Source: Solirubrobacter deserti (GTDB lineage: Bacteria; Actinomycetota; Thermoleophilia; Solirubrobacterales; Solirubrobacteraceae). Taken from it: a stretch of 64,000 nucleotides of DNA. The stretch spans positions 62,001 to 126,000 of the forward strand of contig NZ_JAPCID010000011.1 in assembly GCF_027587175.1 (NCBI RefSeq). The letters are read 5' to 3'. The notes under the pieces were generated by a model. It was not told the origin of the DNA and ran no database searches. It worked only from the letters and a program-made list of their open reading frames with translations. Positions 1 to 55,687 of the stretch are shown here, piece after piece (positions within the stretch are counted from its first letter, which is position 1; the number at the start of each line of letters is the position of its first letter). The position numbers and the translations under genes were made by a program.

Positions 1-1146
1 CCAGCGCCGGCTCGCGTTCGGCGCGGGCAGCTTCTCGATCGTGCGCATCCGGCCGCGGGGGACCTTGAACTCCTCGGCTCCGCCGCCCCGCTCGACGTCG
101 AAGCGCAGCACGTTGCGCGTGCCCGCGGACTCACCGTCGATGTTCTGGAGCACGATCTCCGAGCCGGGTCGGAAGCCGCGGAAGTCGACGAGCAGCTCGA
201 TCCGCTCGGCCGGGTGGATCAGCACCGTGGACCGCAGCACCGGCTGCTCCAGCAGCCCGCCGTCCGACGCGACCTGCAGCAGCGTACGGCCGTTGCCGAG
301 CTTGAGCGTGTAGGAGCGCGCGTTGGACGCGTTCAGCAGCCGCAGCCGGTAGAGCCGGCGCTTGACCGCCATCCGCGGCGACACCGCGCCGTTGACGAGG
401 ATCGTGTCCCCGCGGAACCCGAGGTCCACGTTCTCGGAGTAGCGGAAGGACCCGTCCTTGTTGAACGCGTGATCGGCGATCGTGAGCGGGATGTCGAATT
501 CGGGGTCCGTCGGCAGCCCGAGCTCCTCCTCACGGTCGTCCGACAGCAGATAGGAGCCGACCAGGCCGTAGTAGAGCGTGTGCGCAGTCCGCCCGTGCGC
601 GTGATCGTGGTACCAGAGGTAGGCCGCGTCCTGGTCGTTCGGATACGTGTAGTCGAAGCTCTTGCCCGGAAGGATCACGTCCATCGGGTGTCCGTCGTGC
701 GCGGACGGTACGTACCCGCCGTGCAGGTGCACGTTGGAGTCGAACGACAGCTTGTTCGTCTGACGCACGATCGTCGGGCGGCCCTTGCGCGCGCGGATCG
801 TCGGCCCCGGATAGATGCCCTCGTAGCCGTAGATCGGCGTCTCGAACCCCGGCAGGATCTCGGTGAGGCCCTCCTGGATGTCCATCGCGTAGACGTCGAC
901 GCCCTGGCGCGTCGAGACCGGCGAAAGCGTGGGCGGGATCGGCAGATCGCGGCTGAACGGCGTGAACGGCGTCGCCGCCTTGAAGCGGCGCCCGGCCGAC
1001 GTCGGCGCCGTGGACCGGGTGATCTCAGCGCCCTTGAGCGAGCTCTGCGCGGCGAACGTGCAGACGAGCGCGAGCGAGCTGAACCCGTTGCGCATGAAGT
1101 CACGCCGGTTGGAGCCGGCGCCGAAGGGCGGCTGCTGCGGCGTCAT
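1..1146 (-). CDS. Multicopper oxidase, CotA/bilirubin-oxidase type (C-terminus beyond the left edge)
   Basis: Secreted copper enzyme that oxidises a substrate and reduces O2 to water. About 381 residues are visible. The N-terminus carries a twin-arginine motif (NRRDFMR, residues 14-20) followed by a hydrophobic stretch, so Tat export of the folded protein is likely. The first trinuclear-site signatures HLHGG and WYHDHAHG are present; the C-terminal HxxHxH and HCH motifs would lie outside the window. The ATG (1144-1146) shares one base with the stop of the upstream cupredoxin (TGATG), so the two are translationally coupled. The substrate cannot be told from the sequence. The coupling suggests the cupredoxin is its electron partner, which is inference. 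Confidence 0.88.
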   Translation of the reverse strand, partial: MTPQQPPFGAGSNRRDFMRNGFSSLALVCTFAAQSSLKGAEITRSTAPTSAGRRFKAATPFTPFSRDLPIPPTLSPVSTRQGVDVYAMDIQEGLTEILPGFETPIYGYEGIYPGPTIRARKGRPTIVRQTNKLSFDSNVHLHGGYVPSAHDGHPMDVILPGKSFDYTYPNDQDAAYLWYHDHAHGRTAHTLYYGLVGSYLLSDDREEELGLPTDPEFDIPLTIADHAFNKDGSFRYSENVDLGFRGDTILVNGAVSPRMAVKRRLYRLRLLNASNARSYTLKLGNGRTLLQVASDGGLLEQPVLRSTVLIHPAERIELLVDFRGFRPGSEIVLQNIDGESAGTRNVLRFDVERGGGAEEFKVPRGRMRTIEKLPAPNASRRW

Positions 1147-1949
1147 CAGCGCTTCACCTTCACCGACTTGCGCTGGACGGCGGCTTGGTTGCCGCGTGCG
1201 TCACGCGCCTGGAGCTCGAAGCGGTAGCTCCCGCCGGTGAGCCCGCGGACCGTGAGCGAGCGCGCGCCGGACCGCGCGGACAGGCGGATGGTCTTCACGC
1301 TCGACTTCCCCTTCTTGACGCGGACGGTCACGTTCGCCGTCTCCGACAGCGAGAACGACACTTTCGCTCCGCGCTTGACGGCCTTGAGCTTGATCCGGCT
1401 GATGACGGGCGCGACGGTGTCGCCACGTGCCGCCCCGACCGGCGCCGGCGTCGTGCGATCCATCCCCGGCGTCGGGGTGGGCGTCACCGTCGGTCGCACG
1501 GTCGGCGCCGGCGTGGGCGTGCCGGTGGGCGTCCCCGACGGGGTCGGCGTCGCCTCCACCGGGTCGCCCGTGACCGTCACGGTCCCGAACATCGTGCTGG
1601 CGTGGGCGTCGCAGATGAAGCGGTAGGAACCGGGCTGCGTGAACGTGAACTCGAGCTCGCCGTCATTGCCGAAGCCCGAGTTGGCCTTCAGCCAGTTCGG
1701 GTCCGTCTCCGGTCCCGACTCGCCGCGGACGTTGTGCTGCTGTCCGGCCCGCTCCCAGCGCCACGTCACGGTGTCGCCGGTATTGATGCTGACATTCGGC
1801 TTGTCCCACGCCGTCTCTCCCGCGATGCCGATGAGCTCGTCCGCCGCGCGCTCCTCGGCCGCCCCCGCCACACCGACGGACCCGACGAGCGCTCCGGTCA
1901 GCACGACCCCGATCGCGGCGTGTACGACTCGCCGCTTCCCCTGCGCCAT
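1146..1949 (-). CDS. Secreted plastocyanin-like cupredoxin with Pro/Thr linker and C-terminal beta-sandwich
   Basis: A 267-residue exported type-1 copper protein. A signal peptide ends near residue 30. A cupredoxin domain follows, with the ligand set His (QQHNV) then Cys-His-Met (CDAHASTM), as in plastocyanin. Next come a low-complexity TPTPTP/GTPTP linker and a C-terminal domain of the bacterial beta-sandwich type common in this group's secreted proteins (FSLSETANVTV, then ARDARGN). The ATG at 1949 has a clear GGAGGAG ribosome site. It is first in an operon with the multicopper oxidase. The likely role is one-electron transfer outside the cell, either to the oxidase or from a dehydrogenase. 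The family is certain, the partner is inferred. Confidence 0.87.
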   Translation of the reverse strand: MAQGKRRVVHAAIGVVLTGALVGSVGVAGAAEERAADELIGIAGETAWDKPNVSINTGDTVTWRWERAGQQHNVRGESGPETDPNWLKANSGFGNDGELEFTFTQPGSYRFICDAHASTMFGTVTVTGDPVEATPTPSGTPTGTPTPAPTVRPTVTPTPTPGMDRTTPAPVGAARGDTVAPVISRIKLKAVKRGAKVSFSLSETANVTVRVKKGKSSVKTIRLSARSGARSLTVRGLTGGSYRFELQARDARGNQAAVQRKSVKVKR

Positions 1950-2099
1950 GTTCTCCTCCAACACCGATCTGCTCCCCAACCTACCGAATCGGCCAGGTAC
2001 TTCAGCCGTCCGGTATTCCAAAGCGGTGACCTTGGCTCTGATTGGCTGGTAGGTTACGGCAAGTCGTAGCTGAAATGCGCAGGGGGAGATCGGGAGAGA
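1950..2099. promoter_or_regulatory. Divergent promoter region between the copper operon and the secreted-protein operon
   Basis: A 150-base gap between two outward-facing genes. The same -10-like hexamer TAGGTT occurs on both strands: 2050-2055 on the plus strand and 1978-1983 (read as AACCTA) on the minus strand. This would give leaders of roughly 38 and 22 bases. The -35 elements are poor. The matching elements suggest joint control of the two units, but this rests on pattern reading only. Confidence 0.35.
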
Positions 2100-4091
2100 A
2101 TGCGGTCCGCACGGACGTCGCTTGCTCTGGGAGCAGTCGTGTTGGGAGGCGCGCTCATCGGTCCGGCGGGGACCGGGAGCGCCGCGCCGGCGGGTGGACA
2201 ACCCGCAGCGGTCGATGGATGTTTGATTGACAGTTGCAGCGCGCTTCGGACGATCCGCGCCGCCGAGACCAGCATCCTCGACACGATCGGAATCACCCGC
2301 GCCGACACGCGGAGCAAGAGCCAGATTCGGGGTGGCTACTCGTTCAAGGGCGACCTCATGCCGGAGTCCAAGAGCGTCACCGAGGGCCCGAACGACACCG
2401 TCGACGACGTCCCGCTGCGGATGCCCGACACGACCGGCAACGTGGCCAACCTCGCCGCGTTCAAGGGCCAGGTGCTCGAGCTGCCACCAGGGCAGCAGCG
2501 CCGGTACACGAAGCTGCACTTCTTCGGCACCACGACCGACGGAGACGGCGGCGGCGAGTTCACGCTCACGTACACCGAAGGGCCGGACCAGAAGGTCACG
2601 GTCGCGTTCCCCGACTGGTGCCAGTCCGGCACACCGGACGCGCACATCGCGATCGGGCCGGTTCCGGGGCGCTACACGACCACCGGGGAGGACGGCGCCC
2701 CGTGCTCGATCTTCCACGTCGTGCGCAACCCGGACCCGGCACGCACCCTGAGGTCCGTGACACTGCCGTCCGGGACGAGCGGGGGCGGCGATCGCGTCGC
2801 GCACCTGATGGCGCTCACGCTCGAGGGCGCGGAGTCCTCGTTCACGATGCCCTACCTCGACGGCGTGAACCCGTACCCGAACGACGGCGTCGCGCCGACC
2901 ACGTCCGGCGCGCTGGCGGGCACGCCCGACACCAGCGGGTGGCACCGCACGCCGCCCACGCTCACGATCGGCGCCGACGACGGCGACGGCTCGGGCGTCG
3001 AGCGCATCCAGTACCGCGTCAACGGCGGGCCCGGCCGCACCTACTCGGGGCCGGTGGCGATCACCGACGAGGGTGACCTGAACATCGAGTACCGCGCCTA
3101 CGACCGGGCCGGCAACCCGAGCGCGTTCAAGAGCATCCGGGCCAAGGTCGACGCCACCGCGCCGGCGACGTCCGCGGTCACCTACCCGCAGTCGCCGCCC
3201 GCGAACGGCTGGAACGACAGCGACGTCAAGGTCACGCTGGGCGCGCAGGACGGCTCCGGCTCCGGCGTCACGAGGACCGAATATCGCGTGGGGGAGGCCC
3301 CGGTGACGCCGTACGCCGACACGTTCGCCGTCGGCGGGACCGGCACGCAGGTCGTGCAGTACCGGTCGGTCGACGCCGCCGGCAACGAGGAGCCGTGGAA
3401 GTCGATGGACATCCGCGTCGACACGCTCGCGCCCACGACCACCGTGCTGCTCAACGGCGCGGCGCCGGTGGCCGAGTACGTCAACGCGGCGCGCGTCGCG
3501 TTCACCCGCTCGGACGGGGAGGACAGCTCGGGCGCGGTCAGCACCGAGTACCGCGTCGACGGCGGCGCATGGAAGCCGTACGAGGGCGCGTTCGACCTGA
3601 CCCACCGGCAGGTCTATCAGCTCGACTTCCGCTCGACCGATCAGGTGGGCAACGTCGAGAACTACAGGAGCGTTCGCTTCACGGTCCGCGCCCCGACGGT
3701 GCTCGAGGCCCCGCGCCAGCAGGCCCCCTCCACGACGGCGCCGAAGCCGTTCGCCGCGATCGCGGACGTCTCGACCCGGGTGCGGACGCTCACCGCGCTG
3801 CGCGCCGGGCGGTTCCGCGTGAATGTGAGCTGCCAGGGCGTCCGGCGCGGGAAGCTGATCGCGACGGTCACCCGTGCCATCGCTCGCAAGCTGAAGCTGA
3901 AGTCGAGCACGCTGGCGTCCAAGACGCTCGACTGCGGGGAAGAGGGTCGCGCGACGGTGTCGCTCAGGCCCTCCTCCGCCATTCGCACACGGCTCGCGCG
4001 GACGACGGGGTCCGTGCAGGTCAAGTTGACGCTGCGCATGACGGGTGCGCCGGCCGACACGCAGACGGTGACGTTGAAGGGGAAGTCGTGA
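2100..4091 (+). CDS. Secreted protein with OmpL47/Ig-like repeats and a conserved C-terminal domain
   Basis: A 663-residue exported protein of unknown function. It has a signal peptide (MRSARTSLALGAVVLGG..., cleaved near GSAAPA) and a unique N-terminal half of about 250 residues with Cys pairs. Three repeats of the type 'EYRVDGG.W..Y.G...DYRS.D..GN' follow (about residues 270-530), the OmpL47/beta-sandwich repeat of bacterial cell-surface proteins. The last 110 residues resemble the C-terminus of the next gene (KLKLKSSTL, LRPSSAI). ATG 2100 follows GGGAGAGA. The stop overlaps an ATG (4091) of the following gene, so the two are an operon. It may be an adhesin or a carbohydrate-binding partner of the giant protein downstream. 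Confidence 0.7.
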   Translation: MRSARTSLALGAVVLGGALIGPAGTGSAAPAGGQPAAVDGCLIDSCSALRTIRAAETSILDTIGITRADTRSKSQIRGGYSFKGDLMPESKSVTEGPNDTVDDVPLRMPDTTGNVANLAAFKGQVLELPPGQQRRYTKLHFFGTTTDGDGGGEFTLTYTEGPDQKVTVAFPDWCQSGTPDAHIAIGPVPGRYTTTGEDGAPCSIFHVVRNPDPARTLRSVTLPSGTSGGGDRVAHLMALTLEGAESSFTMPYLDGVNPYPNDGVAPTTSGALAGTPDTSGWHRTPPTLTIGADDGDGSGVERIQYRVNGGPGRTYSGPVAITDEGDLNIEYRAYDRAGNPSAFKSIRAKVDATAPATSAVTYPQSPPANGWNDSDVKVTLGAQDGSGSGVTRTEYRVGEAPVTPYADTFAVGGTGTQVVQYRSVDAAGNEEPWKSMDIRVDTLAPTTTVLLNGAAPVAEYVNAARVAFTRSDGEDSSGAVSTEYRVDGGAWKPYEGAFDLTHRQVYQLDFRSTDQVGNVENYRSVRFTVRAPTVLEAPRQQAPSTTAPKPFAAIADVSTRVRTLTALRAGRFRVNVSCQGVRRGKLIATVTRAIARKLKLKSSTLASKTLDCGEEGRATVSLRPSSAIRTRLARTTGSVQVKLTLRMTGAPADTQTVTLKGKS

Positions 4092-4114
4092 TGTTCGACA
4101 GGGGAGAGCAGGCA

Positions 4115-7100
4115 ATGAGGGGACGTTGGCTGTGGGCACTGGTGCTCGCACTCGCGCTCAGCGCGTTCGGTGCGGGGACCGCCCAGGCACAGACGGGCCC
4201 GAAGGTGCTCGTGCTCAAGGGCGCCGACAACGCGACCAACACCGCGGCGGTCGCCGCGATGAAGGCCCTCGGGACCGCCAACGGGTTCACGGTCGAGGAG
4301 GCCGCGGGTGTGGACGACATCAACTCGTCCAAGCTCGCCGACTACCAGTCGCTGGTGTTCCTCAACGTCGGCGGCGACGTCCTCGACCCCGGCGGCGAGG
4401 CGGCGCTGCAGAGCTACGTCGAGCGCGGCAACGGCTTCCTCGGCATCGGTTCCACGGCCACGCTGCAACCCGGTTCGGACTTCGTCACCAGCCTGATCGG
4501 CGCGCGCCCCACCTCGGCGGGCGAGACCGCCGCCAAGACGCTGGTCGCGGGCGACCGCGTGCACCCGGCGACGCGCGAGCTCCCGCTGCAGGCCGAGCGC
4601 AACGACGTCTGGTACCAGTGGCGGAGCCGCCCGACCGGCAAGACGCACGTGGTCGCGCGCTACCACGCGCCCACCGAGAGCGCCGGCGACGGCACGGCGG
4701 TCGGCGGCACCGACCATCCGATCTCGTGGTGCCATGACTTCCAGGGCGGTCGCTCGTTCTACATGGGCATGGGCCGCACGACGGCCGCCTGGGACGACAC
4801 GCTCTCCAAGCACGTGCTCGGCGCGCTGCAGTGGACCACGGGCCTGGTGCGCGCCGACTGCAAGGCGACGATCAACAGCAACTACAAGGCGACCAAGCTC
4901 ATGAGCTCCGGGGCGACCGTGACCGGCCTGGCCACGAGCGGTGAATCCCACGGCCTGTCGATCGCCGACAACGGCTGGGTGCTGTACATCGGCCGCGGCG
5001 ACTGCCGCACGGACGCCGAGCGCGGCGCGCTGATCGGCGTCCCGGCGTTCGCGCGTGCCTTCAACCACGCGGACCCGAACGTCGGTGTCGGCTGCGGCTC
5101 GGTGCACATCTTCGACCCCGCGCAGTACACGGGCGCCGAGAACAGCGGCGTCACCCGCGCCGGCACGCTCGCGGTCTACGGCGACGGCGGCCAGGGCGGC
5201 GAGCGCACCGACCAGGACAACCACAAGATGGAGTACGGCCTGATCGGCATCGTCGCCGACCCGAAGTTCTCCGAGAACGGCTACGTCTACCTGCAGTACT
5301 TCCCGACCTTCAACCCGGCGACCAAGCCGGCCGGCCTGCCGCTCGAGCGGCGGATCTCGAAGCTGTCGCAGCCGCGCATCTCGCGCTTCACGGTCAACCG
5401 GCAGACCAAGCAGCTCGACCTGGACTCCGAGCGGATCATCTTCAAGTACGACGCCCAGATCTACTCCTGCTGCCACGTCGGCGGGGGCATGGGCTTCGAC
5501 AGCCAGGGCAACCTCTACGTCACCACGGGGGACACGAACTCCTCGCAGAACGCGGGCGAGGAGGCGGTCACGGGCCCGCTCGGCTACTCGGGCAACAACC
5601 CGCTCGCCAAGTGCCCGGTGGGCCCCGCGGGCGAGGCCTCCAGCGCGCACTGCGGCACCGCCAACTACTCCTACCAGGACGCGCGCCGGACCGCGGGCAA
5701 CACGAACGACTACAACGGCAAGCTGCTGCGCTTCAATCCGCTTGAGGACATCCCGGCGGGAACCGAGCCGGGGGTCGGCCGCACGTACTCGCTGCCGGAC
5801 GCCAGCTCGCCGAACGGCCCGAACCTGTTCGACGGCCAGGAGGGCGGGGGCGGCAAGACCAAGCCCGAGATCTACGCGATGGGCCTGCGCAACCCGAGCC
5901 GCCTGTCGATCGACCCCAAGACGGACACGCCGTACACCGCGTGGGTCGGCCCGGACGCCCAGCAGCCGAACGCGACCTGGGGTCCGTCGACCTACGAGAA
6001 CGCCGCCCAGATCACGCGGGCCGGCAACTATGGCTGGCCGTACTGCATGGGCTCCAAGCAGGCCTACCGCGACCGCCTCGCGGACGGCAGCCCGCGTACG
6101 GCCAACGGGCCGGGGTACGTGCCCGGCGGCCCGGCCTCGGGCGGCACCGACGGCTGGTACGACTGCGACAACCTGCGCAACGACTCGCCCAACAACACGG
6201 GCCTGGTCGAGCTGCCGCACGAGACCGGCACCGGCGCGGACGCCGGCAAGGTCCGCGGCAACAACCTCTGGTGGTCGCGTGGCAACAAGGGCGGCAACAA
6301 CGGCTGCCCCGAGTTCGAGCGTCCGCGCTCGAGCGGCGGCACGATCGCCGCACCGAACTACGACGCGACGCCCAAGCAGGGCTGCGCCTACGTGACCGCC
6401 AACGGCCTGACCGTGATGAACGGCCCCGTGTACCGCTACGCGGCCGGCGCGGACAACTCACGCCGCTGGCCCGCGTACTGGGACGGCCGTTGGTTCCTGC
6501 ACAACAACGGCAACGACTCCGTCAAGCACGCGCTGTTGCTGGATCCGGCGACCGCCGGCACGGGCGGCCTGCCGGTGTGGGCCGACTCGCTGCGGACCAT
6601 GCTCACGTGGAACGGCTCCTACATGGACTCCAAGTTCGGGCCCGACGGCGCGCTCTACGTCCAGACCTACGACGGCTTCTTCCGCGCCGGCACCCGCGTC
6701 GGCCTGTACCGCTACGACTACGTCGGTGGCGCCCCGACCCCGGGCGCGAACCCGCGGGCGTTCGCGATCGGCGACCTCGCCGCGCGCTTCTCGAGCCGCG
6801 GCTCGGGCGGCAAGACGTTCGAGTGGGACTTCGGTGACGGCTCGGCCAAGTCGACCGACGCCAACCCGACGCACACGTATCCGCGCGCCGGCAGGTTCAC
6901 CGCGACGTTGACGGTGACCTACGCCGACGGCGCCAAGGACAGCAAGACGGTCCAGGTCGACGTGATCGCGGAGACCGACGCGACCGCGCCGGTCACGACC
7001 GCGACGCTGACCCCGGCCACGCCGGACGAGGCGCCGAACGTCTACCGCCGTCCGGTCACGCTGACGCTCAACGCCGCGGAGGCCACGCCGGGCAGCGGCG

Positions 7101-9535
7101 TGGAGAAGACCGAGTACCGCGTCAACGACGGGCCGTGGCTGGGCTACTCGGCCCCGATTCGCCGTCAGCAGGCCGGGGACTACAAGGTCGAGTACCGCTC
7201 GACCGACCGCAAGGGCAACGCCGAGGAGGTCAAGTCTGTCGCGTTCGCGATCCGGCCGGCCGCGAACTGCACGCCGAACCTCGACGACGAGTTCAACGCC
7301 ACGGCGCTCGACCCGCGGTGGACGGTCCTGCGTGAGGACGCGGCCGCGCGCTCCTTCGTCGAGGGCGCGCTGCGGCTGAAGGTCCGCGCGGGCGACATGA
7401 TCGGCGACCAGGCCTCGGCCAAGAACGTCCTGCTCCAGAACGCGCCCGACGGCGGCTGGCAGGTGCAGACCAAGATCGACGTCTCCACCCTCAACGCCGA
7501 GGGCCAGCAGGCCGGCATCGTGCTGTGGCAGAGCGAGGGCGCTGACAACACGTTCGCGAAGATCACCTACATCGCCAAGAACGGGTTCTCCCAGTACGAG
7601 TGGGTGGCGACGCGCGACTCCGAGGAGGAGATCAAGGCCGGGCCGGAGATCTCGACGCCCAAACACGTGTACCTGCGCGTGAGCACTGACGGCTCTGGGA
7701 CGTACATCGCCGAGGGCTCGACCAACGGCGAGACCTGGCAGCAGATCGGGCCGGAGCTCGACGACCTCGGCGACCCGAACTCGCTGAAGATCGGCCTCAA
7801 GGTCTCCGACAACGCAGATTCCGAGAGCTACGCCGCGTTCGACTGGTTCCGCGTGGACTGCTCGGACCGCTTCGCGCCGCGCACGACGGCCACGCTGACC
7901 GGCGGCACGCAGGGCCAGTTCGGCTGGTGGACGTCCGCCCCCGCGGTGGAGCTGAAGGCCGACGACGGCGCCCGTGGGCAGCTGGACAAGGTCTACTACC
8001 GCGTCGGCGAGGGCCCGGAGCGCGTCTACGAGGGCCCGTTCACGATCAGCGAACCGGGCGAGCACGTCGTCAGCTACTACGCGACCGACGCCAACGGCAA
8101 CGTCGAGAACACCAAGCAGCTCGCCTACCGGATCGACGGCGCGGCCCCGGCGATCGAGGCCGAGCAGGTGGGCAACCCGGCGACCGGGCCGGTCAAGGTC
8201 ACGCTCGACGCGCAGGACGGCGACGCCGGCTCGGGCACGGTGCTGACCGAATACCGGGTCGACGGCGGCCCGTGGACGACATACTCGGCCGTCGACGAGC
8301 ACGTGCTGCTCGACGAGTCCGCGAGCACCCTCGCGCAGTGGCAGCAGGTGGGTGACGGCGGGTTCGAGCGCATGGAGCCCGGCGAGAAGGACGTGGACCT
8401 GGGCGGCATCTCGCCGACCGAGAGCGAGTCGCTCGGGATGCTCTACTACAGGACGCAGGACTTCGGCGACTTCCGCTTGAAGCTGCAGTTCAAGGAGGGC
8501 CGCCCCGAGGGCGACTCCAACGGCGGCGTGTTCGTGCGCTTCCCGAACCCCGAGCAGACGCCGCGGGTGCACGAGTGCTCGAAGGCCGGCGCCGCCGCGG
8601 ACGAGCCGGCGTGGGTCGCGATCAACTGCGGCCACGAGATCCAGCTCTACGACGGCGAGGAGGGCGAGTCGCGCAAGACGGGCTCGGTCTACACGTTCGA
8701 CAACAACGGCATCGAGGACATCGGCCTGCCGAAGCGCGGTCAGTGGGAGGACTACGAGATCGAGGTCGTGGGCCAGCACTACAAGATCAGCCGCAACGGC
8801 GACGTGATCAACGAGTGGGACAACCTCCCGGGCCTGAACTCGGATCGCGCCGGGGACCCGAGCACGACGCTGCGGCAGTTCGCCCGCGGCTACATCGGCC
8901 TGCAGAACCACGGTGGCGAGGACCGGATGCAGTACCGCAACGTCACCATCGAGGACCTCACGCCGGGCAAGCCGAAGGCCGAGGACGCCAAGCCCAACAT
9001 CCAGATCACGGGGGCCGGGCCGCACACGATCGAGGTCCGCGCGACCGACGAGGCCGGCAACACGAGCCGTGAGACGTTCGATCTGGCGATCGGCGACCCG
9101 GCCGCGCCGGGCGGTGCGACGCCGCAGCCGGCGCCGCTGCCCCCGACGAGCACGATCCTGCCGCCCATGATCGACTCGCCGGCGACCTACCGGCTGGGCT
9201 CGCTGAGCTCGCGCGTGACGCGCACGTCGTTCACCAAGCGCGGCCTGAAGGTCCCGATCAGCTGCACCGGCGCGATGGACGGCACGGTGAAGCTGACCGT
9301 CTCCAGCCGTGACCGCAAGCGGCTCAAGCTCAAGAGCGCGACGCTCAAGAGCACCGATGTCCGCTGCTGGGGCCCGCACCGCGTGACGGTGACGCTCAAG
9401 CCTTCGTCGGCGATCGCGAAGCGCTTGGCGGCCAAGGGCGGGCCGAAGCGCGTGAAGCTGACCCTGTCCGTGCAGATGCGCGACTGGGGCAAGCCCGCGG
9501 CGACGACGCGACGGACGATCACGCTCCAGCGGTAG
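4115..9535 (+). CDS. Giant secreted ThuA / sugar dehydrogenase / PKD / DUF1080 protein
   Basis: An 1806-residue exported protein. Approximate order: signal peptide 1-25 (cut after AQA); ThuA-like domain 28-245; glucose/sorbosone dehydrogenase-type propeller 258-870; PKD domain 882-950 (WDFGDGS); OmpL47 repeat 958-1045; DUF1349-like concanavalin fold 1051-1250; OmpL47 repeat 1252-1342; another OmpL47 repeat split by a DUF1080-type domain (about 1392-1618); conserved C-terminal domain 1686-1806. ThuA and DUF1080 proteins are linked to 3-keto-sugar chemistry, and the propeller family oxidises sugars with PQQ. The predicted role is extracellular oxidation and cleavage of a glycan. ATG 4115 is preferred over in-frame ATG 4091 because GGGGAGAG lies 7 bases upstream and the signal peptide then starts cleanly. 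Confidence 0.85.
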   Translation: MRGRWLWALVLALALSAFGAGTAQAQTGPKVLVLKGADNATNTAAVAAMKALGTANGFTVEEAAGVDDINSSKLADYQSLVFLNVGGDVLDPGGEAALQSYVERGNGFLGIGSTATLQPGSDFVTSLIGARPTSAGETAAKTLVAGDRVHPATRELPLQAERNDVWYQWRSRPTGKTHVVARYHAPTESAGDGTAVGGTDHPISWCHDFQGGRSFYMGMGRTTAAWDDTLSKHVLGALQWTTGLVRADCKATINSNYKATKLMSSGATVTGLATSGESHGLSIADNGWVLYIGRGDCRTDAERGALIGVPAFARAFNHADPNVGVGCGSVHIFDPAQYTGAENSGVTRAGTLAVYGDGGQGGERTDQDNHKMEYGLIGIVADPKFSENGYVYLQYFPTFNPATKPAGLPLERRISKLSQPRISRFTVNRQTKQLDLDSERIIFKYDAQIYSCCHVGGGMGFDSQGNLYVTTGDTNSSQNAGEEAVTGPLGYSGNNPLAKCPVGPAGEASSAHCGTANYSYQDARRTAGNTNDYNGKLLRFNPLEDIPAGTEPGVGRTYSLPDASSPNGPNLFDGQEGGGGKTKPEIYAMGLRNPSRLSIDPKTDTPYTAWVGPDAQQPNATWGPSTYENAAQITRAGNYGWPYCMGSKQAYRDRLADGSPRTANGPGYVPGGPASGGTDGWYDCDNLRNDSPNNTGLVELPHETGTGADAGKVRGNNLWWSRGNKGGNNGCPEFERPRSSGGTIAAPNYDATPKQGCAYVTANGLTVMNGPVYRYAAGADNSRRWPAYWDGRWFLHNNGNDSVKHALLLDPATAGTGGLPVWADSLRTMLTWNGSYMDSKFGPDGALYVQTYDGFFRAGTRVGLYRYDYVGGAPTPGANPRAFAIGDLAARFSSRGSGGKTFEWDFGDGSAKSTDANPTHTYPRAGRFTATLTVTYADGAKDSKTVQVDVIAETDATAPVTTATLTPATPDEAPNVYRRPVTLTLNAAEATPGSGVEKTEYRVNDGPWLGYSAPIRRQQAGDYKVEYRSTDRKGNAEEVKSVAFAIRPAANCTPNLDDEFNATALDPRWTVLREDAAARSFVEGALRLKVRAGDMIGDQASAKNVLLQNAPDGGWQVQTKIDVSTLNAEGQQAGIVLWQSEGADNTFAKITYIAKNGFSQYEWVATRDSEEEIKAGPEISTPKHVYLRVSTDGSGTYIAEGSTNGETWQQIGPELDDLGDPNSLKIGLKVSDNADSESYAAFDWFRVDCSDRFAPRTTATLTGGTQGQFGWWTSAPAVELKADDGARGQLDKVYYRVGEGPERVYEGPFTISEPGEHVVSYYATDANGNVENTKQLAYRIDGAAPAIEAEQVGNPATGPVKVTLDAQDGDAGSGTVLTEYRVDGGPWTTYSAVDEHVLLDESASTLAQWQQVGDGGFERMEPGEKDVDLGGISPTESESLGMLYYRTQDFGDFRLKLQFKEGRPEGDSNGGVFVRFPNPEQTPRVHECSKAGAAADEPAWVAINCGHEIQLYDGEEGESRKTGSVYTFDNNGIEDIGLPKRGQWEDYEIEVVGQHYKISRNGDVINEWDNLPGLNSDRAGDPSTTLRQFARGYIGLQNHGGEDRMQYRNVTIEDLTPGKPKAEDAKPNIQITGAGPHTIEVRATDEAGNTSRETFDLAIGDPAAPGGATPQPAPLPPTSTILPPMIDSPATYRLGSLSSRVTRTSFTKRGLKVPISCTGAMDGTVKLTVSSRDRKRLKLKSATLKSTDVRCWGPHRVTVTLKPSSAIAKRLAAKGGPKRVKLTLSVQMRDWGKPAATTRRTITLQR

Positions 9536-9538
9536 CGA

Positions 9539-10480
9539 TCAGGCCACGACGTGAAGCGCGCTCGGGATGATCCCGAAGCGCGCTTCCGTCACGTCTTCGA
9601 TGTGGTCACCGTCGACCTGGATCGGGATCGTGCGCCCGTCGGTGGAGCGCACGACCGCCTCGTGGAAGGCGCCGAACGCGTCCACGCCCTTGTGCTTGGC
9701 GATCCGGGCGGCGCCGGACAGCGCACGGAAGGTGACCGTCGGGACGTCGTAAGGACGGGCGCGCGTGAGCACGACGCCGGCGAGGCTGCCCGAGTCGAAG
9801 CGCGCGCCCTCCACCAGCGGGACGGCGCGCGCGTTGAAGTACGTGTAGTTCTCGGCGTTCTGGACGAACAGCGACACACCGCCGACGGTCCGGCCGTCCA
9901 CCTCGACCTCCAGCCGTGGCGGGTTCACGACGTACTTGGACAGGAACGTCGTGATCGCGCACTCGACGTAGTAGAACGGGCCGAAGCGCTTCTTGAGGGC
10001 CGGGTTGCGGTCCACGCGCTCGACGACGCTCGCGTCCAGCCCCATGCCGGCGGCGAACGTGAAGTGGCGGCCGTTGACCGTGCCGAGGTCGACCGTGCGC
10101 GGCGCCCACGCGTCGGCGAGGCCGAGCAGGTGCTCGGTGGCGTCGACGACGTCGGTCGGGATGCCGAGCAGCTTCGCGACGACGTTGTTGTTGCCGCCGG
10201 GCAGCAGCGTGAGCGCGGTCTCGGTGCCGACGAGGCCGTTCGCGACCTCGTTGACCGTGCCGTCGCCGCCGAACGCCAGCACGGTGTCGTAGCCGTCGGC
10301 CGCCGCCTGGCGCGCCAGCTCGACGCCGTGGCCCTTGGCTTCGGTGTCGGCGGTCGTGACCTCGTAGCGGCCCTGGAGGGCGTAGACGACCAGGCTCTTG
10401 AGCCGGTCGGACATCTTCGTCGCGACCGGGTTGATGATCACGAGCATCCGGCGCCGTTGCGGCGCCGACTCTAGAGCCAT
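9539..10480 (-). CDS. Diacylglycerol kinase / lipid kinase family (YegS/DgkB-like)
   Basis: A 313-residue cytoplasmic kinase of the DAGK catalytic family, which phosphorylates a lipid such as diacylglycerol using ATP. The nucleotide loop FGGDGTVNEVANGL is intact. The next conserved loop reads LPGGNNNVVAKLLGIP, where most relatives have P.GTGND.A, so the substrate may differ. The ATG at 10480 lies inside the 3' end of the upstream corA-like gene (10-base overlap), giving translational coupling. An in-frame ATG at 10447 (MLVIINP) is a possible shorter start. The gene ends 4 bases from the convergent giant-protein gene. Confidence 0.82.
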   Translation of the reverse strand: MALESAPQRRRMLVIINPVATKMSDRLKSLVVYALQGRYEVTTADTEAKGHGVELARQAAADGYDTVLAFGGDGTVNEVANGLVGTETALTLLPGGNNNVVAKLLGIPTDVVDATEHLLGLADAWAPRTVDLGTVNGRHFTFAAGMGLDASVVERVDRNPALKKRFGPFYYVECAITTFLSKYVVNPPRLEVEVDGRTVGGVSLFVQNAENYTYFNARAVPLVEGARFDSGSLAGVVLTRARPYDVPTVTFRALSGAARIAKHKGVDAFGAFHEAVVRSTDGRTIPIQVDGDHIEDVTEARFGIIPSALHVVA

Positions 10481-11466
10481 CCCCGCCGCTTGAAGACGGC
10501 TGCGACGCCGACCACGACCGCGACCATCACGCCGATGATGATCCAGAACGGGACCATGTTGCCGTCCTGGCCCGGCACGTGGACGTTCATGCCGAAGATG
10601 CTCGCGATCAGCGTCAGCGGCAGGAAGATCAGCGAGATCGCCGTCAGCGCGCGGAACGTCTCGTTCGTGCGGTGCGCGATCGCCGACTCGTTCGTGGCCT
10701 CGAGCCCTTCCACGACCTCCTTGAAGTTCTCGAGCATGTCCCAGCCGCGCTCGGACGCGTCGATGATGTCGTCGAAGTAGATGTCGAGGTCCTCGGCGAT
10801 GTAGCGCGCCTTGTTGCGCTCGAGGTCGCGGAAGGCGACGCGCTGCGGCCGGACGATCTTGCGGAAGTTGATGATCTCCTGCTTGGCGTTGGAGATGTCG
10901 CGCACGACGTCCTCGCCCTCGTCGCCCTCGAAGATCGCTTCCTCGATCCGCTCGAGCTTGTTGCCGATCTTGCCCAGCATCGGGAACGCGGCATCGACGC
11001 AGTCGTCGACGATCTTGTAGAGCAGGTAGCCCGAGCCCTTGGAGAACAGCTGGTCGCGGAACTCCTCGTTGGTGCGGCAGCGTTCGAACAGGTCCTCGAC
11101 GCGCTCGACCGGCTCGTTCGGGAGCGTGATCAGAAAGTCGGGGCCGACGAAGAAGTCGACCTCGGCGGCGTTCAGCCGCGCGACCTTCTTGTCGTAGCGC
11201 GGGAAGTGGAGCACGATGAACAGGTAGTCGTCGTACTCGTCGACTTTCGGGCGCTGGTTGCGCGAGCGCACGTCCTCGTAGTCGAGGGCGTGGAAGTCGA
11301 AGTGCTCCTCCAGCCACGCCTGCTCGAGCGAACGCGGGCGCTCGATGTTGATCCAGCGCAGGCCGGGGGACTCGACGATCTCGACGCGCGGCTCGGTGCG
11401 CTCAGGCGCGACCTCAACCGTCGTGCGACCGCGCCGACCGAACGGGCTTCTGGGCAGGCTCGGCAT
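10471..11466 (-). CDS. corA: CorA-family divalent metal ion (Mg2+/Co2+) transporter
   Basis: A 331-residue inner-membrane channel of the CorA/2-TM-GxN family. It has a soluble acidic and helical N-terminal domain of about 265 residues. Two C-terminal transmembrane helices (about 270-290 and 305-325) flank the signature GMN (SIFGMNVHVPG). The C-terminus is basic (FKRRGWL), as is usual. It functions as a pentamer for Mg2+ influx. No good ribosome site precedes ATG 11466. A -10-like TAGAAT lies on this strand at 11514-11519, giving a leader of about 41 bases. Its last 10 bases overlap the downstream lipid kinase, so they are one operon. Confidence 0.9.
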   Translation of the reverse strand: MPSLPRSPFGRRGRTTVEVAPERTEPRVEIVESPGLRWINIERPRSLEQAWLEEHFDFHALDYEDVRSRNQRPKVDEYDDYLFIVLHFPRYDKKVARLNAAEVDFFVGPDFLITLPNEPVERVEDLFERCRTNEEFRDQLFSKGSGYLLYKIVDDCVDAAFPMLGKIGNKLERIEEAIFEGDEGEDVVRDISNAKQEIINFRKIVRPQRVAFRDLERNKARYIAEDLDIYFDDIIDASERGWDMLENFKEVVEGLEATNESAIAHRTNETFRALTAISLIFLPLTLIASIFGMNVHVPGQDGNMVPFWIIIGVMVAVVVGVAAVFKRRGWL

Positions 11467-11683: not shown

Positions 11684-11717
11684 GTTGGGGTTCTCCCGGT
11701 GCACCTGCCGAAGAAGA

Positions 11718-11740
11718 CTCCGCCGCACACCCGGGCGGAG
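11718..11740 (+). promoter_or_regulatory. Riboswitch expression platform: hairpin hiding the thrC ribosome site
   Basis: CTCCGCC (11718-11724) pairs perfectly with GGCGGAG (11734-11740). The second arm contains most of the only Shine-Dalgarno-like sequence (GGAGG, 11737-11741) before the ATG at 11753. There is no following T-run. This favours control of translation initiation rather than transcription termination. Confidence 0.7.
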
Positions 11741-11752
11741 GATTCAAATCAC

Positions 11753-12982
11753 ATGCCGGCAGATGCCCTGAAGTGCAAGGAATGCAAGACCGAGTACCCG
11801 CTCGAGGCCCGCTTCGTCTGTGAGCGCTGCTTCGGTCCGCTCGAGGTCAGCTACTCGGCCCCGAATGGGGACCCCGCCGAGATCAAGCGCAGGATCCAGG
11901 CCGGGCCGCACACCATCTGGCGCTACGCGGACTTCCTGCCGCTGGCCGGGCCGGCGCGCAGCGCGCTGCCGACGGGCTGGACGCCGCTGGTGAAGGCGGA
12001 CCGCCTGGCCGAGAGGCTCGGGCTCGGCGAGGTCTGGATCAAGAACGAGACCGCCAACCCGACGCACTCGTTCAAGGACCGCGTCGTGTCCGTGGCGCTC
12101 GCGCGTGCAACGGAGCTCGGCTTCGACACGCTCGCGTGTGCCTCCACGGGCAACCTCGCCAACGCCGTCGCCGCGCACGCCGCGGCCGCCGGGCTGCCCG
12201 CCTACGTGCTGATCCCGCACGACCTCGAGGAGCAGAAGATCCTCGCCACGGGCGCCTACGGCGCGCAGATCGTCGCCGTCACGGGCAACTACGACGACGT
12301 CAACCGGCTCTGCACGCAGGTCTCGGGCGAGCGCCCGAACTGGGCGTTCGTGAACATCAACATGCGTCCGTACTACGCCGAGGGCTCCAAGACACTCGCG
12401 TTCGAGACCGTCGAGCAGCTCGGCTGGGAGCTTCCGGACCGCGTCGTGGGCCCGATCGCGTCCGGCTCGCAGTTCACCAAGCTCGCGCGCGGCTTCCAGG
12501 AGTTCATCGACGCCGGGCTCGTCGAGGGCTCGGTCCCCACGATGAACGGCGCCCAGGCGCTGGGCTGCTCGCCCGTCGCGACCGCCTTCGCGGCCGGGAC
12601 CGACGTGTGCAAGCCGGTCAAGCCGGACACGATCGCCAAGTCGCTCGCCATCGGCAACCCCGCCGACGGGCCGTACGCCGTCGAGCTCGCCCGGTCGACC
12701 GGCGGCTCGATCGACTCCGTGACCGACGACGAGATCCGCGCGGGCATCCGCCTGCTCGCGGAGACGACCGGCATCTTCACCGAGACGGCGGGCGGCGTGA
12801 CGATCGGCACGCTGGCCAAGCTCGCCGAGCGCGGCGACATCGGCCCCGAGGAGCGCGTCGTGTGCATGGTCACCGGCGATGGCCTGAAGACCATCGACGC
12901 CGTGCGCGACACGTTCGAGGTCGCGACCATCCCGGCCGACCTCGACGCCTTCGACGAGCGCTTCGCGCCGGCGGTGGCGTGA
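11753..12982 (+). CDS. thrC: Threonine synthase (PLP enzyme, zinc-ribbon type)
   Basis: A 409-residue fold-type II PLP enzyme. Threonine synthase converts O-phosphohomoserine to threonine. An N-terminal zinc ribbon (CKECK...CERC, residues 7-30) is followed by the PLP-lysine motif NPTHSFKDR, the substrate motif ASTGNLANA and a glycine-rich region. ATG 11753 is chosen over an in-frame GTG at 11699 because the latter lies inside the riboswitch leader. It is first in a three-gene operon with a CysO-like carrier and MetF, all behind a SAM riboswitch. Control by SAM makes sense because O-phosphohomoserine is the branch point to methionine. Use of a sulfur donor by this enzyme instead is possible but unproven. 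Confidence 0.87.
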   Translation: MPADALKCKECKTEYPLEARFVCERCFGPLEVSYSAPNGDPAEIKRRIQAGPHTIWRYADFLPLAGPARSALPTGWTPLVKADRLAERLGLGEVWIKNETANPTHSFKDRVVSVALARATELGFDTLACASTGNLANAVAAHAAAAGLPAYVLIPHDLEEQKILATGAYGAQIVAVTGNYDDVNRLCTQVSGERPNWAFVNINMRPYYAEGSKTLAFETVEQLGWELPDRVVGPIASGSQFTKLARGFQEFIDAGLVEGSVPTMNGAQALGCSPVATAFAAGTDVCKPVKPDTIAKSLAIGNPADGPYAVELARSTGGSIDSVTDDEIRAGIRLLAETTGIFTETAGGVTIGTLAKLAERGDIGPEERVVCMVTGDGLKTIDAVRDTFEVATIPADLDAFDERFAPAVA

Positions 12983-54514: not shown

Positions 54515-55218
54515 CGCACGTCCACGAGGACATCGGGGCCTACGTGCTCGGTGCGCTGGACGCGGAGAACGTCAAGCGCGTGGAGGCCCATCTGGCGGAG
54601 TGCGCCGAGTGCGCGGCCGCCCACGCCGAGCTCGCCGGGCTGCCGGCGCTGCTCGACCTGGCGGTGGTGACCGGCGCGACGGACGAGGAGCCGCTCCCGC
54701 CCGCGATCGAGGAGCGGATCCTCGACCGCTTCGCGCGCGAGCACTCGCCTGAGCCCAAGCAGCGGCGCCGCTGGCGGCCTCGGATCGCGATCGCGATCCC
54801 GAGCGCGCTCGTCGGTGCCGCGGCGGCGGCGGCCGCGCTGGTCCTCGGGTTCGGCTTCGAGCGGGCGCCGGAGCGCCCCGCCAACCAGTACCGGCTGGTG
54901 CTGCAGCCGATCAGCGCCGCGGCGCAGAACGGCAGCGCCCGCGCCGGGCTGCGGACGACCGCCGAGGGCACCGTCGTCCGGCTGTGGGTGTACGACCTGC
55001 CGGGCGGCCCGCAGGACATCTACGAGGTCTTCTGCGACGCGAAGGGCTGGAGCGCGAGCGCCGGCACGTTCCGCGTCGACGCCCAGGGCAACGGCTACGT
55101 CATCCTCACCTCAGCCGTCAAGCGCGGCCAGTACGAGGCGTTGCGCATCGTCCGCCGCGCACACTACGCGGGCGGCGACGTGCGGGACATCGACATCCTG
55201 CGGGCCAAGATCTCGTGA
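54511..55218 (+). CDS. Zinc-binding anti-sigma factor (ZAS/RskA type)
   Basis: A 235-residue membrane protein. The N-terminal cytoplasmic domain has the HxxxCxxC zinc motif (HLAECAEC), one transmembrane helix follows at about 92-112 (IAIAIPSALVGAAAAAAALVLGF), then an extracytoplasmic RskA-type beta domain (WVYDLPGGPQDIYEVFCDAKG). It should hold the ECF sigma factor inactive until a surface signal arrives. Confidence 0.92.
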   Translation: MTHVHEDIGAYVLGALDAENVKRVEAHLAECAECAAAHAELAGLPALLDLAVVTGATDEEPLPPAIEERILDRFAREHSPEPKQRRRWRPRIAIAIPSALVGAAAAAAALVLGFGFERAPERPANQYRLVLQPISAAAQNGSARAGLRTTAEGTVVRLWVYDLPGGPQDIYEVFCDAKGWSASAGTFRVDAQGNGYVILTSAVKRGQYEALRIVRRAHYAGGDVRDIDILRAKIS

Positions 55219-55220
55219 AC

Positions 55221-55247
55221 CTCGGGATGCGCGCTGCGTATCCCGAG
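55221..55247 (+). other. Perfect inverted repeat before the cupredoxin lipoprotein gene
   Basis: CTCGGGAT (55221-55228) pairs with ATCCCGAG (55240-55247), ending two bases before ATG 55250 and starting two bases after the anti-sigma stop. It has no T-run. It may hide the start codon region, protect the mRNA or be a weak terminator. Confidence 0.5.
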
Positions 55248-55249
55248 TT

Positions 55250-55687
55250 ATGAGACGTATCGCAGTATTCGCGGCGAGTGCCGCGCTGATGTTCGCCGCG
55301 TGCGGCGGTGACGAGGAGGAGCCCGCCGCCACGCCCGCCGCCACCGAGGCGGCGACCGAGGCGCCCACGGAGGCGCCGACCGAGGAGGCCGCCGCGAGCG
55401 GGGGCGGGGCCACGCTGGCCATCGCCGCCGACCCGGGCGGCGCCAACGCCTTCACCGAGACCGAGCTGGAGGCCGCCGCCGGCGACGTCACCATCGAGTT
55501 CGCCAACGAGTCCTCCAAGCCGCACTCGGTCGTCATCGAGGGCGTCGACGGCGCCGCCACCGAGACCGTTCAGGCAGCGGACGCCCCGCCGGTCGACGTG
55601 ACGCTGGAAGCGGGCGAGTACACGTACTTCTGCCCGGTCGGCAATCACCGTGCCGACGGCATGGAGGGCAAGCTCACGGTCCGGTAG
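55250..55687 (+). CDS. Cupredoxin lipoprotein (plastocyanin-like)
   Basis: A 145-residue exported copper protein. The signal peptide ends in a lipobox-like LMFAAC, so it is probably membrane-anchored by lipid. A Glu/Ala/Thr/Pro spacer precedes the cupredoxin fold with ligand His in SKPHSVV and Cys-His-Met in FCPVGNHRADGM. It likely carries electrons at the cell surface. It follows the sigma/anti-sigma pair and overlaps the convergent SRPBCC gene by 43 bases. Confidence 0.85.
   Translation: MRRIAVFAASAALMFAACGGDEEEPAATPAATEAATEAPTEAPTEEAAASGGGATLAIAADPGGANAFTETELEAAAGDVTIEFANESSKPHSVVIEGVDGAATETVQAADAPPVDVTLEAGEYTYFCPVGNHRADGMEGKLTVR

What the first reader, a model, noticed from the sequence alone, without database searches (positions are those of the whole stretch)
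4115..9535. One secreted polypeptide joins ThuA, sugar dehydrogenase and DUF1080: a possible oxidise-then-cleave glycan machine
Seen: a signal peptide, then ThuA, a glucose/sorbosone-dehydrogenase propeller, PKD, OmpL47, DUF1349-like and DUF1080 domains in 1806 residues. Known: ThuA proteins act on 3-keto-sugars, DUF1080 members are 3-keto-disaccharide hydrolases, and the propeller family oxidises sugars. Inference: the chain could oxidise a sugar unit and cleave the glycosidic bond by a keto-intermediate outside the cell, instead of by classical hydrolysis.
Basis: partly seen in the sequence, partly recalled or inferred. Interest (0 to 1): 0.75.

Follow-up and report, generated by a model that had tools for sequence, protein, structure and literature searches.

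The report
Secreted sugar-oxidise-and-cleave copper system (candidate)
A soil bacterium makes one giant secreted protein that carries a sugar-oxidase-like part and a keto-sugar-cutting part, and in many relatives, including Streptomyces, the same parts sit beside a blue-copper protein and a well-studied enzyme of unclear purpose, the small laccase, which suggests an unrecognised extracellular way of breaking sugar bonds with oxygen.

Summary
ORF 4115-9535 (+) encodes 1,806 residues: signal peptide, ThuA, six-bladed GSDH-type propeller, PKD, OmpL47 repeats, a concanavalin-like domain, and a 3-keto-glycoside (DUF1080) domain nested inside an Ig-like repeat. The genus is Solirubrobacter.

In 67 related actinobacterial loci the same ThuA-propeller unit has DUF1080 in the same or a nearby gene (65), a cupredoxin (64) and a SLAC-type two-domain laccase (63). 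In 51 Streptomyces genomes the ThuA-propeller gene and SLAC occur in the same 30, always adjacent. The window locus has the cupredoxin gene (P0007, divergent), conserved in four congeners, but no laccase next to it. Some relatives also fuse an IolE-like TIM barrel.

PQQ chemistry is doubtful and the cofactor unknown.

Best reading: an extracellular 3-keto-glycoside elimination system whose oxidative step feeds electrons into blue copper, and in SLAC-bearing relatives to O2. New variant of a known kind; enzymatic steps are inferred.

The parts
4115..9535 (+). P0001: secreted 1,806-aa ThuA - propeller - PKD - OmpL47 - GH43_C2 - OmpL47 - [DUF1080 nested in an Ig-like repeat] - C-terminal domain
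   Evidence: orthologues in 4 congeners
4115..4192 (+). signal peptide (by eye: MRGRWLWALVLALALSAFGAGTAQAQ)
   Evidence: translation; not tested with a predictor
4202..4837 (+). ThuA domain, residues 30-241
   Evidence: PF06283 1.5e-40; Z 22.9 to ThuA-like 4jqs
4868..6724 (+). six-bladed GSDH-type propeller, about residues 252-870; CCH motif at 452-454, RN at 592-593; lacks K377/R406/R408 equivalents
6779..6964 (+). PKD domain, residues 889-950
   Evidence: PF18911 1.7e-15
7058..7252 (+). OmpL47-type repeat, residues 982-1046
   Evidence: NF047446
   Evidence: PF17851 1.6e-19
7931..8158 (+). OmpL47-type repeat, residues 1273-1348
8207..8290 (+). first half of the Ig-like OmpL47 repeat that hosts DUF1080
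   Evidence: AlphaFold model, pLDDT 91.7
8294..8968 (+). DUF1080 / 3-keto-disaccharide hydrolase domain, residues 1394-1618
   Evidence: PF06439 8.7e-26; Z 19.8 to 8rr2 and 9fbe
8999..9091 (+). second half of the host Ig-like repeat
   Evidence: Big_13 over cut-off at 1634-1659
9152..9532 (+). C-terminal domain resembling the C terminus of P0002 by eye (surface or sorting role guessed)
   Evidence: P0002 C terminus matches C termini of P0001 orthologues in blastp
2100..4091 (+). P0002: secreted 663-aa protein with OmpL47 repeats, 23 bases upstream of P0001; orthologues next to P0001 orthologues in 4 congeners, two of them in ORFs that also carry a DUF1080 domain
1146..1949 (-). P0007: secreted cupredoxin (QHN ... 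FICDAHASTM), divergent from P0002/P0001; conserved in 4 congeners

Best explanation
P0001 is the main chain of an extracellular system that breaks glycosidic bonds by oxidation and elimination rather than classical hydrolysis. Inferred order: the ThuA-propeller unit binds and oxidises a sugar ring (presumably at C3); electrons leave through the blue-copper protein encoded next door (P0007), and in SLAC-bearing relatives go on to a two-domain laccase and O2; the DUF1080 domain on the same chain then cleaves the 3-keto-glycoside by 1,2-elimination/hydration. An IolE-like TIM barrel, fused or nearby in some relatives, handles the keto-glycal product. Shown: domain content, nested DUF1080, conserved association with cupredoxin, SLAC-type laccase and TIM barrel, retention of the catalytic His and of DUF1080 conserved residues. 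Inferred: redox activity of the propeller, C3 as target, direction of electron flow. Unknown: the cofactor (PQQ anchors are missing), the role of ThuA, the substrate.
For: (1) DUF1080 family, fold and conserved residues match solved 3-keto-glycoside eliminase/hydratases. (2) The propeller matches PQQ sugar dehydrogenases best (Z 29.5 to 2ism) and keeps sGDH His144 and Arg228-Asn229 in nearly all ThuA-linked members. (3) 67 best-matching loci from other genomes: DUF1080 in the same or a nearby ORF in 65, cupredoxin in 64, SLAC-type laccase in 63, in different arrangements: two adjacent genes with divergent laccase (Streptomyces), one chain with co-directional laccase (Micromonospora, Jiangella, Asanoa and others), one chain with fused cupredoxin (Solirubrobacter). 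(4) In 51 genomes of the Streptomyces group of G253 the ThuA-propeller gene is in 30 and SLAC in the same 30, 269-569 bases between the matches in all; 20 have neither and one has only a SLAC remnant. (5) A relative joins TIM barrel, ThuA, propeller, DUF1080 and cupredoxin in one ORF (L087). (6) The cupredoxin-P0002-P0001 trio is kept in four congeners. (7) P0001's propeller groups with the SLAC/DUF1080-linked clade, support 1.0.
Against: PQQ-anchoring residues are absent and no PqqC was found in the genome, so no cofactor for the oxidation is known. HHIP, a binding protein with this fold, is among the structural matches. DUF1080's fold is also that of sugar-binding modules. No laccase lies beside the window locus; the genome's laccase-like genes are elsewhere. 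One paralogue has ThuA and DUF1080 without a propeller (L067), and several ThuA-propeller proteins have no DUF1080, so the parts are separable. No biochemical data.
Confidence: 0.5

Rival explanations
1. Phenolic-glycoside system: the chain strips sugars from plant phenol glycosides by 3-keto elimination, and the laccase with cupredoxin acts on the released phenol (detoxification or mediator cycling), not as the electron sink of the sugar oxidation.
For: Laccases oxidise phenols, and a known 3-keto eliminase acts on a flavonoid glucoside (PMC10628242). Laccase, cupredoxin and DUF1080 co-occur.
Against: It does not explain why the cupredoxin is fused to the DUF1080 chain or the ThuA-propeller chain, which fits internal electron transfer better. 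It still needs a sugar oxidase.
Confidence: 0.2
2. Glycan-binding scaffold: the propeller has lost redox function, like HHIP, and together with OmpL47, PKD, GH43_C2 and perhaps DUF1080 it holds a polymer, while oxidation is done by another enzyme or not at all.
For: K377, R406 and R408 are lost; HHIP structures with heparin-like ligands match the model; DUF1080 fold resembles CBM66 and lectins.
Against: The sGDH base His144 and Arg228-Asn229 are kept in nearly all of about 105 ThuA-linked propellers, and a CCH motif in 74 of 74 members of the clade, which binding alone does not obviously require; cupredoxin and laccase linkage implies redox.
Confidence: 0.2
3. One reading: a PQQ/Ca-dependent sugar dehydrogenase fused to a 3-keto-glycoside hydrolase.
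For: Nearest solved relatives are PQQ sugar dehydrogenases; His144, Arg228, Asn229 kept; AA12 binds PQQ without Lys377 by other residues (PMC6881789).
Against: Arg406 and Arg408 are also lost in P0001, and 408 is mostly Met in the ThuA-linked set; no PqqC in a 96.7% complete genome, although PQQ could be scavenged.
Confidence: 0.1

Closest known systems
3-keto-glycoside pathway of Bacteroides (BT2157-type PF06439 proteins) and related eliminase/hydratases
   Same: DUF1080 fold and conserved residues (8tda, 8v31, 8rr2, 9fbe); oxidise-then-eliminate logic; TIM-barrel partner (last point from own knowledge).
   Different: There the oxidation is by other dehydrogenases as separate proteins (own knowledge). 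Here a ThuA-propeller and DUF1080 share one secreted chain, with copper proteins next door.
Caulobacter LacABC lactose 3-dehydrogenase plus DUF1080 (PMC9007349)
   Same: Envelope-side sugar oxidation followed by proposed DUF1080 cleavage.
   Different: The oxidase is membrane-bound LacABC; no ThuA, propeller or laccase is described there.
Soluble PQQ glucose dehydrogenase / aldose sugar dehydrogenases (1cq1, 2ism, 3das) and AA12
   Same: Six-bladed propeller fold, His144, Arg228-Asn229.
   Different: PQQ carboxylate anchors K377, R406, R408 absent; CCH motif; long insertions; fused to ThuA and DUF1080.
Streptomyces small laccase SLAC (3cg8)
   Same: It is the laccase encoded beside the Streptomyces form of this system (S. 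coelicoflavus copy nearly identical to 3cg8).
   Different: SLAC is studied as a lignin/phenol oxidase; physiological roles of two-domain laccases are called poorly understood (PMC13151041). I found no paper linking it to ThuA-propeller or DUF1080 genes.
Hedgehog-interacting protein (HHIP)
   Same: Same propeller fold.
   Different: Animal binding protein, not fused to ThuA or DUF1080.

Membership tests
PF06439 3-keto-disaccharide hydrolase (DUF1080) | score over Pfam gathering cut-off over the whole model | tested here: met
   91.5 bits vs 26.8, profile 5-187/187
PF06439 3-keto-disaccharide hydrolase (DUF1080) | fold of solved 3-keto-glycoside eliminase/hydratases | tested here: met
   Z 19.8 to 8rr2 and 9fbe, 19.5 to 3osd/BT2157
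PF06439 3-keto-disaccharide hydrolase (DUF1080) | family-conserved polar residues (E/Q/D of HEIQxxD, TG..Y, W, N, QxH, RN) | tested here: met
   which of them are catalytic could not be read from a held paper
PF06439 3-keto-disaccharide hydrolase (DUF1080) | activity on 3-keto-glycosides | not testable with these tools
   needs purified protein
ThuA (PF06283) | score over cut-off and ThuA fold | tested here: met
   140 bits vs 33.4; Z 22.9 to 4jqs
PQQ-dependent sugar dehydrogenase (sGDH/Asd, PF07995) | six-bladed propeller fold and Pfam score | tested here: met
   63 bits vs 25; Z 29.5 to 2ism
PQQ-dependent sugar dehydrogenase (sGDH/Asd, PF07995) | catalytic base His144 and Arg228-Asn229 | tested here: met
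PQQ-dependent sugar dehydrogenase (sGDH/Asd, PF07995) | PQQ carboxylate-binding Lys377, Arg406, Arg408 | tested here: not met
   G, S, M in P0001; control L037 keeps both arginines; Lys377 and Arg408 named as PQQ-binding in PMC6881789, Arg406 from own knowledge
PQQ-dependent sugar dehydrogenase (sGDH/Asd, PF07995) | host can make PQQ | tested here: inconclusive
   no PqqC in own genome, 6 of 198 phylum genomes over cut-off; PQQ may be scavenged
AA12 pyranose dehydrogenase | AA12 PQQ ligands (Arg273, His539, His560, Arg621) | not tested
   AA12 structures are lower structural matches, Z about 20.7; residues not aligned
SLAC-linked ThuA-propeller/DUF1080 cluster | propeller belongs to the linked clade | tested here: met
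   clade support 1.0, with one extra own-genome member L078
SLAC-linked ThuA-propeller/DUF1080 cluster | cupredoxin gene adjacent | tested here: met
   P0007, conserved in 4 congeners
SLAC-linked ThuA-propeller/DUF1080 cluster | SLAC-type laccase adjacent | tested here: not met
   none in window or 10 kb upstream of it; two 38-39% relatives and a weaker one elsewhere in the genome

The most novel reading that the evidence does not exclude
An undescribed, widespread actinobacterial extracellular 'oxidative glycosidase': a ThuA-propeller dehydrogenase with a cofactor other than classically bound PQQ, wired through blue copper to the small laccase and O2, and cutting glycosidic bonds by 3-keto elimination on the same chain. 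It would give SLAC its missing physiological role and ThuA a defined place in a pathway.
Probability: 0.35. Interest if true: 0.88.

Novelty: new variant of a known kind. Interest (0 to 1): 0.72.

Why it matters
If right, bacteria have a secreted, oxygen-driven route for breaking glycosidic bonds that is not classical hydrolysis, and the much-used Streptomyces small laccase has a genetic partner system that explains why it exists. The link is testable by three gene deletions in standard Streptomyces strains. It also poses a clean question: what cofactor does a sugar-dehydrogenase propeller use once the PQQ anchors are gone?

Tried and rejected
A PqqC search in the own genome alone was uninformative because the control genomes were also negative; repeated over the phylum to get positives. 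Literature searches found no description of this architecture or of the SLAC neighbourhood; only open-licence PMC papers are held, so this is weak evidence of absence. Papers on 3-keto-glycoside enzymes that I tried by DOI were not held, so published catalytic residues of DUF1080 could not be checked. Residue distances inside the propeller could not be measured: no model coordinates were found in the Python box. The antisense ORF 1146-4151 (-) looked like an artefact over P0002, but its 3' part is the cupredoxin gene. Pfam did not call the TIM barrel in L087; pairwise BLASTP to the L155 TIM domain (35%, 7e-39) did. Associations outside Actinomycetota (for example planctomycetal GSDH/DUF1080/cytochrome proteins recalled from memory) were not tested.

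Full report
OBSERVATION. The ORF at 4115-9535 (+) encodes 1,806 residues with a signal peptide by eye. Pfam and NCBIfam call ThuA (30-241), GSDH (367-481), PKD (889-950), GH43_C2 (1058-1247), DUF1080/PF06439 (1398-1613), all over cut-off, and four OmpL47-type repeats. Full-length orthologues occur in four of five congeners (77, 71, 64, 50%) and not in the other genera of the family that were searched. The nearest named genome is Solirubrobacter taibaiensis.

STRUCTURE. A model of residues 25-884 (pLDDT 89.2, pTM 0.92) gives a ThuA fold (Z 22.9 to 4jqs) and a six-bladed propeller whose best matches are sugar dehydrogenases (2ism Z 29.5, 3a9g 29.2, 3das 27.0, 1qbi 24.6), then HHIP and AA12. A model of residues 1262-1668 (pLDDT 91.7) shows DUF1080 inserted between strands of an Ig-like OmpL47 repeat. 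Its nearest structures are DUF1080 proteins, among them 3-keto-2-hydroxy-glucal hydratases (8v31, 8tda) and 3-keto-glycoside eliminase/hydratases (8rr2, 9fbe) at Z 19 to 20, above the lectin and CBM matches (Z 14 to 18). Residues shared by the family (HEIQxxD, TGSVY, W, N, LQNHG, YRN) are present.

PROPELLER RESIDUES. Sequence-profile alignment to sGDH, a 110-sequence MAFFT alignment and hhalign agree: His144 (in a CCH motif) and Arg228-Asn229 are kept; Lys377 is Gly, Arg406 is Ser and Arg408 is Met in P0001. Across about 105 ThuA-linked propellers Lys377 and Arg408 are never kept, Arg406 only in a few, and 408 is mostly Met. A stand-alone GSDH of the same genome (L037) keeps Arg406 and Arg408 with a pairwise MAFFT alignment to sGDH. 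PMC6881789 states that Lys377 ion-pairs with the C-7 carboxylate of PQQ and names Arg408 as a PQQ-related arginine near the C terminus. That paper also shows that AA12 binds PQQ without Lys377, so loss does not by itself exclude PQQ. PqqC (TIGR02111) is absent from this 96.7% complete genome, while 6 of 198 genomes of the phylum score over cut-off; uptake of PQQ from outside remains possible.

PARALOGUES. The genome holds 23 ThuA places over cut-off, 9 DUF1080 places over cut-off and 39 GSDH matches, many of them pieces of the same propeller. Many are large ThuA-propeller-PKD-CBM6 chains; one carries a cupredoxin (L069), one joins ThuA, propeller, DUF1080 and cupredoxin (L076), one has ThuA and DUF1080 but no propeller (L067).

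NEIGHBOURHOOD. In the window a secreted cupredoxin gene (P0007, 1949 to 1146, minus) stands divergent from P0002 (2100-4091, OmpL47 repeats); P0001 follows P0002 after 23 bases. All three are conserved next to each other in four congeners; in two of these the ORF with the P0002 orthologue also holds a DUF1080 domain, and in one a TIM-barrel gene lies beside it. A second cupredoxin gene lies a little further upstream, outside the window.

OTHER GENERA. The 80 best propeller matches in the genome collection are all actinobacterial. Of the 67 loci L087-L153, which match over the whole propeller, DUF1080 is in the same or a nearby ORF in 65, a cupredoxin in 64 and a SLAC-type laccase in 63; at least three of the misses are at contig ends. 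Neighbours were found with small home-made HMMs (one to six sequences), checked against Pfam or PDB for a few loci. Streptomyces splits the chain: ThuA-propeller, then cupredoxin-Ig-DUF1080, with the laccase divergent. Micromonospora, Jiangella, Asanoa, Saccharomonospora, Cellulosimicrobium and others have one chain of about 1,300-1,600 residues with the laccase upstream on the same strand. The laccase is SLAC: the S. griseus copy scores 580 bits and the S. coelicoflavus copy 734 bits to 3cg8, the latter nearly identical along its length. More distant propellers are fused to an IolE-like TIM barrel (L155-L158, L161), and in L087 one ORF reads TIM, ThuA, propeller, DUF1080, cupredoxin. P0001's propeller falls in the SLAC/DUF1080-linked clade (support 1.0; one further own-genome paralogue, L078, joins it).

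CO-OCCURRENCE. In 51 genomes drawn from the genus of the S. griseus genome, the ThuA-propeller gene is present in 30 and SLAC in exactly those 30, with 269-569 bases between the matches; 20 genomes have neither and one has only an interrupted SLAC remnant. Ignoring shared ancestry, nesting this exact has a hypergeometric probability of 3e-13; shared ancestry makes the true figure larger. In four genomes checked, SLAC is single-copy and is the copy in this cluster.

MECHANISM. The repeated joining of a sugar-dehydrogenase-type propeller to two unrelated families associated with keto-sugar elimination or hydration (PF06439; IolE-like TIM barrels), and to blue-copper proteins and an O2-reducing laccase, is best explained by oxidation of a sugar followed by elimination, with copper carrying electrons away. 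Each chemical step is inference. The main doubt is the oxidation itself, because the PQQ anchors are gone and no cofactor is identified. The window locus has the cupredoxin but no adjacent laccase, so its terminal acceptor is unknown; two SLAC-like genes elsewhere in the genome (38-39%) are candidates.

KNOWN OR NEW. Each domain family is known, and oxidise-then-DUF1080 logic is known from Caulobacter and Bacteroides (PMC9007349). What I did not find described is the single secreted chain and the linkage of ThuA-propeller, DUF1080 and cupredoxin with SLAC, whose class is said to have poorly understood physiological roles (PMC13151041). The library is open-licence only, so prior description elsewhere is possible. 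Verdict: new variant of a known kind.

Noticed in passing
G000 (own genome), loci L067-L086: Expansion of ThuA-bearing proteins (24 places, 23 over cut-off), mostly in 1,000-2,800-residue ORFs; the other genera of the family that were searched give few or no matches to P0001.
   Followed up: partly
L069 3896-12223 (+): One 2,776-aa ORF with cupredoxin, ThuA, propeller, CBM6, four GH43_C2 stretches and a second ThuA.
   Followed up: partly
L174 8036-9040 (+), upstream of the window start: A second cupredoxin gene just outside the window, similar to P0007 (32%).
   Followed up: no
L171 12449-16240 (-), L172 1826-6700 (+): In two congeners the ORF holding the P0002 orthologue also holds a DUF1080 domain, absent from the window's P0002.
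   Followed up: no
G304:C83:33233-33712: A Streptomyces-group genome with only an interrupted SLAC remnant and no ThuA-propeller gene, as if both were lost together.
   Followed up: no
L155 8086-12432, L156, L157, L158, L161: Propellers of the ThuA-linked type fused to IolE-like TIM barrels instead of DUF1080.
   Followed up: partly
74 of 74 propellers of the clade, and 28 of 37 others: CCH motif: two adjacent cysteines directly before the histidine that aligns with sGDH His144; function unknown.
   Followed up: partly
L078 (G000:C1:222305): A ThuA-propeller paralogue that joins the SLAC-linked clade although its catalytic positions read R, S, D instead of H, R, N; possible dead copy or misalignment.
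   Followed up: no
window 10471-11466 (-) and 11699-12982 (+): By eye a CorA-type transporter and a threonine-synthase-like protein; no evident link to the finding.
   Followed up: no
window 54671-55684 (+): Weak cupredoxin-like hit (18 bits).
   Followed up: no
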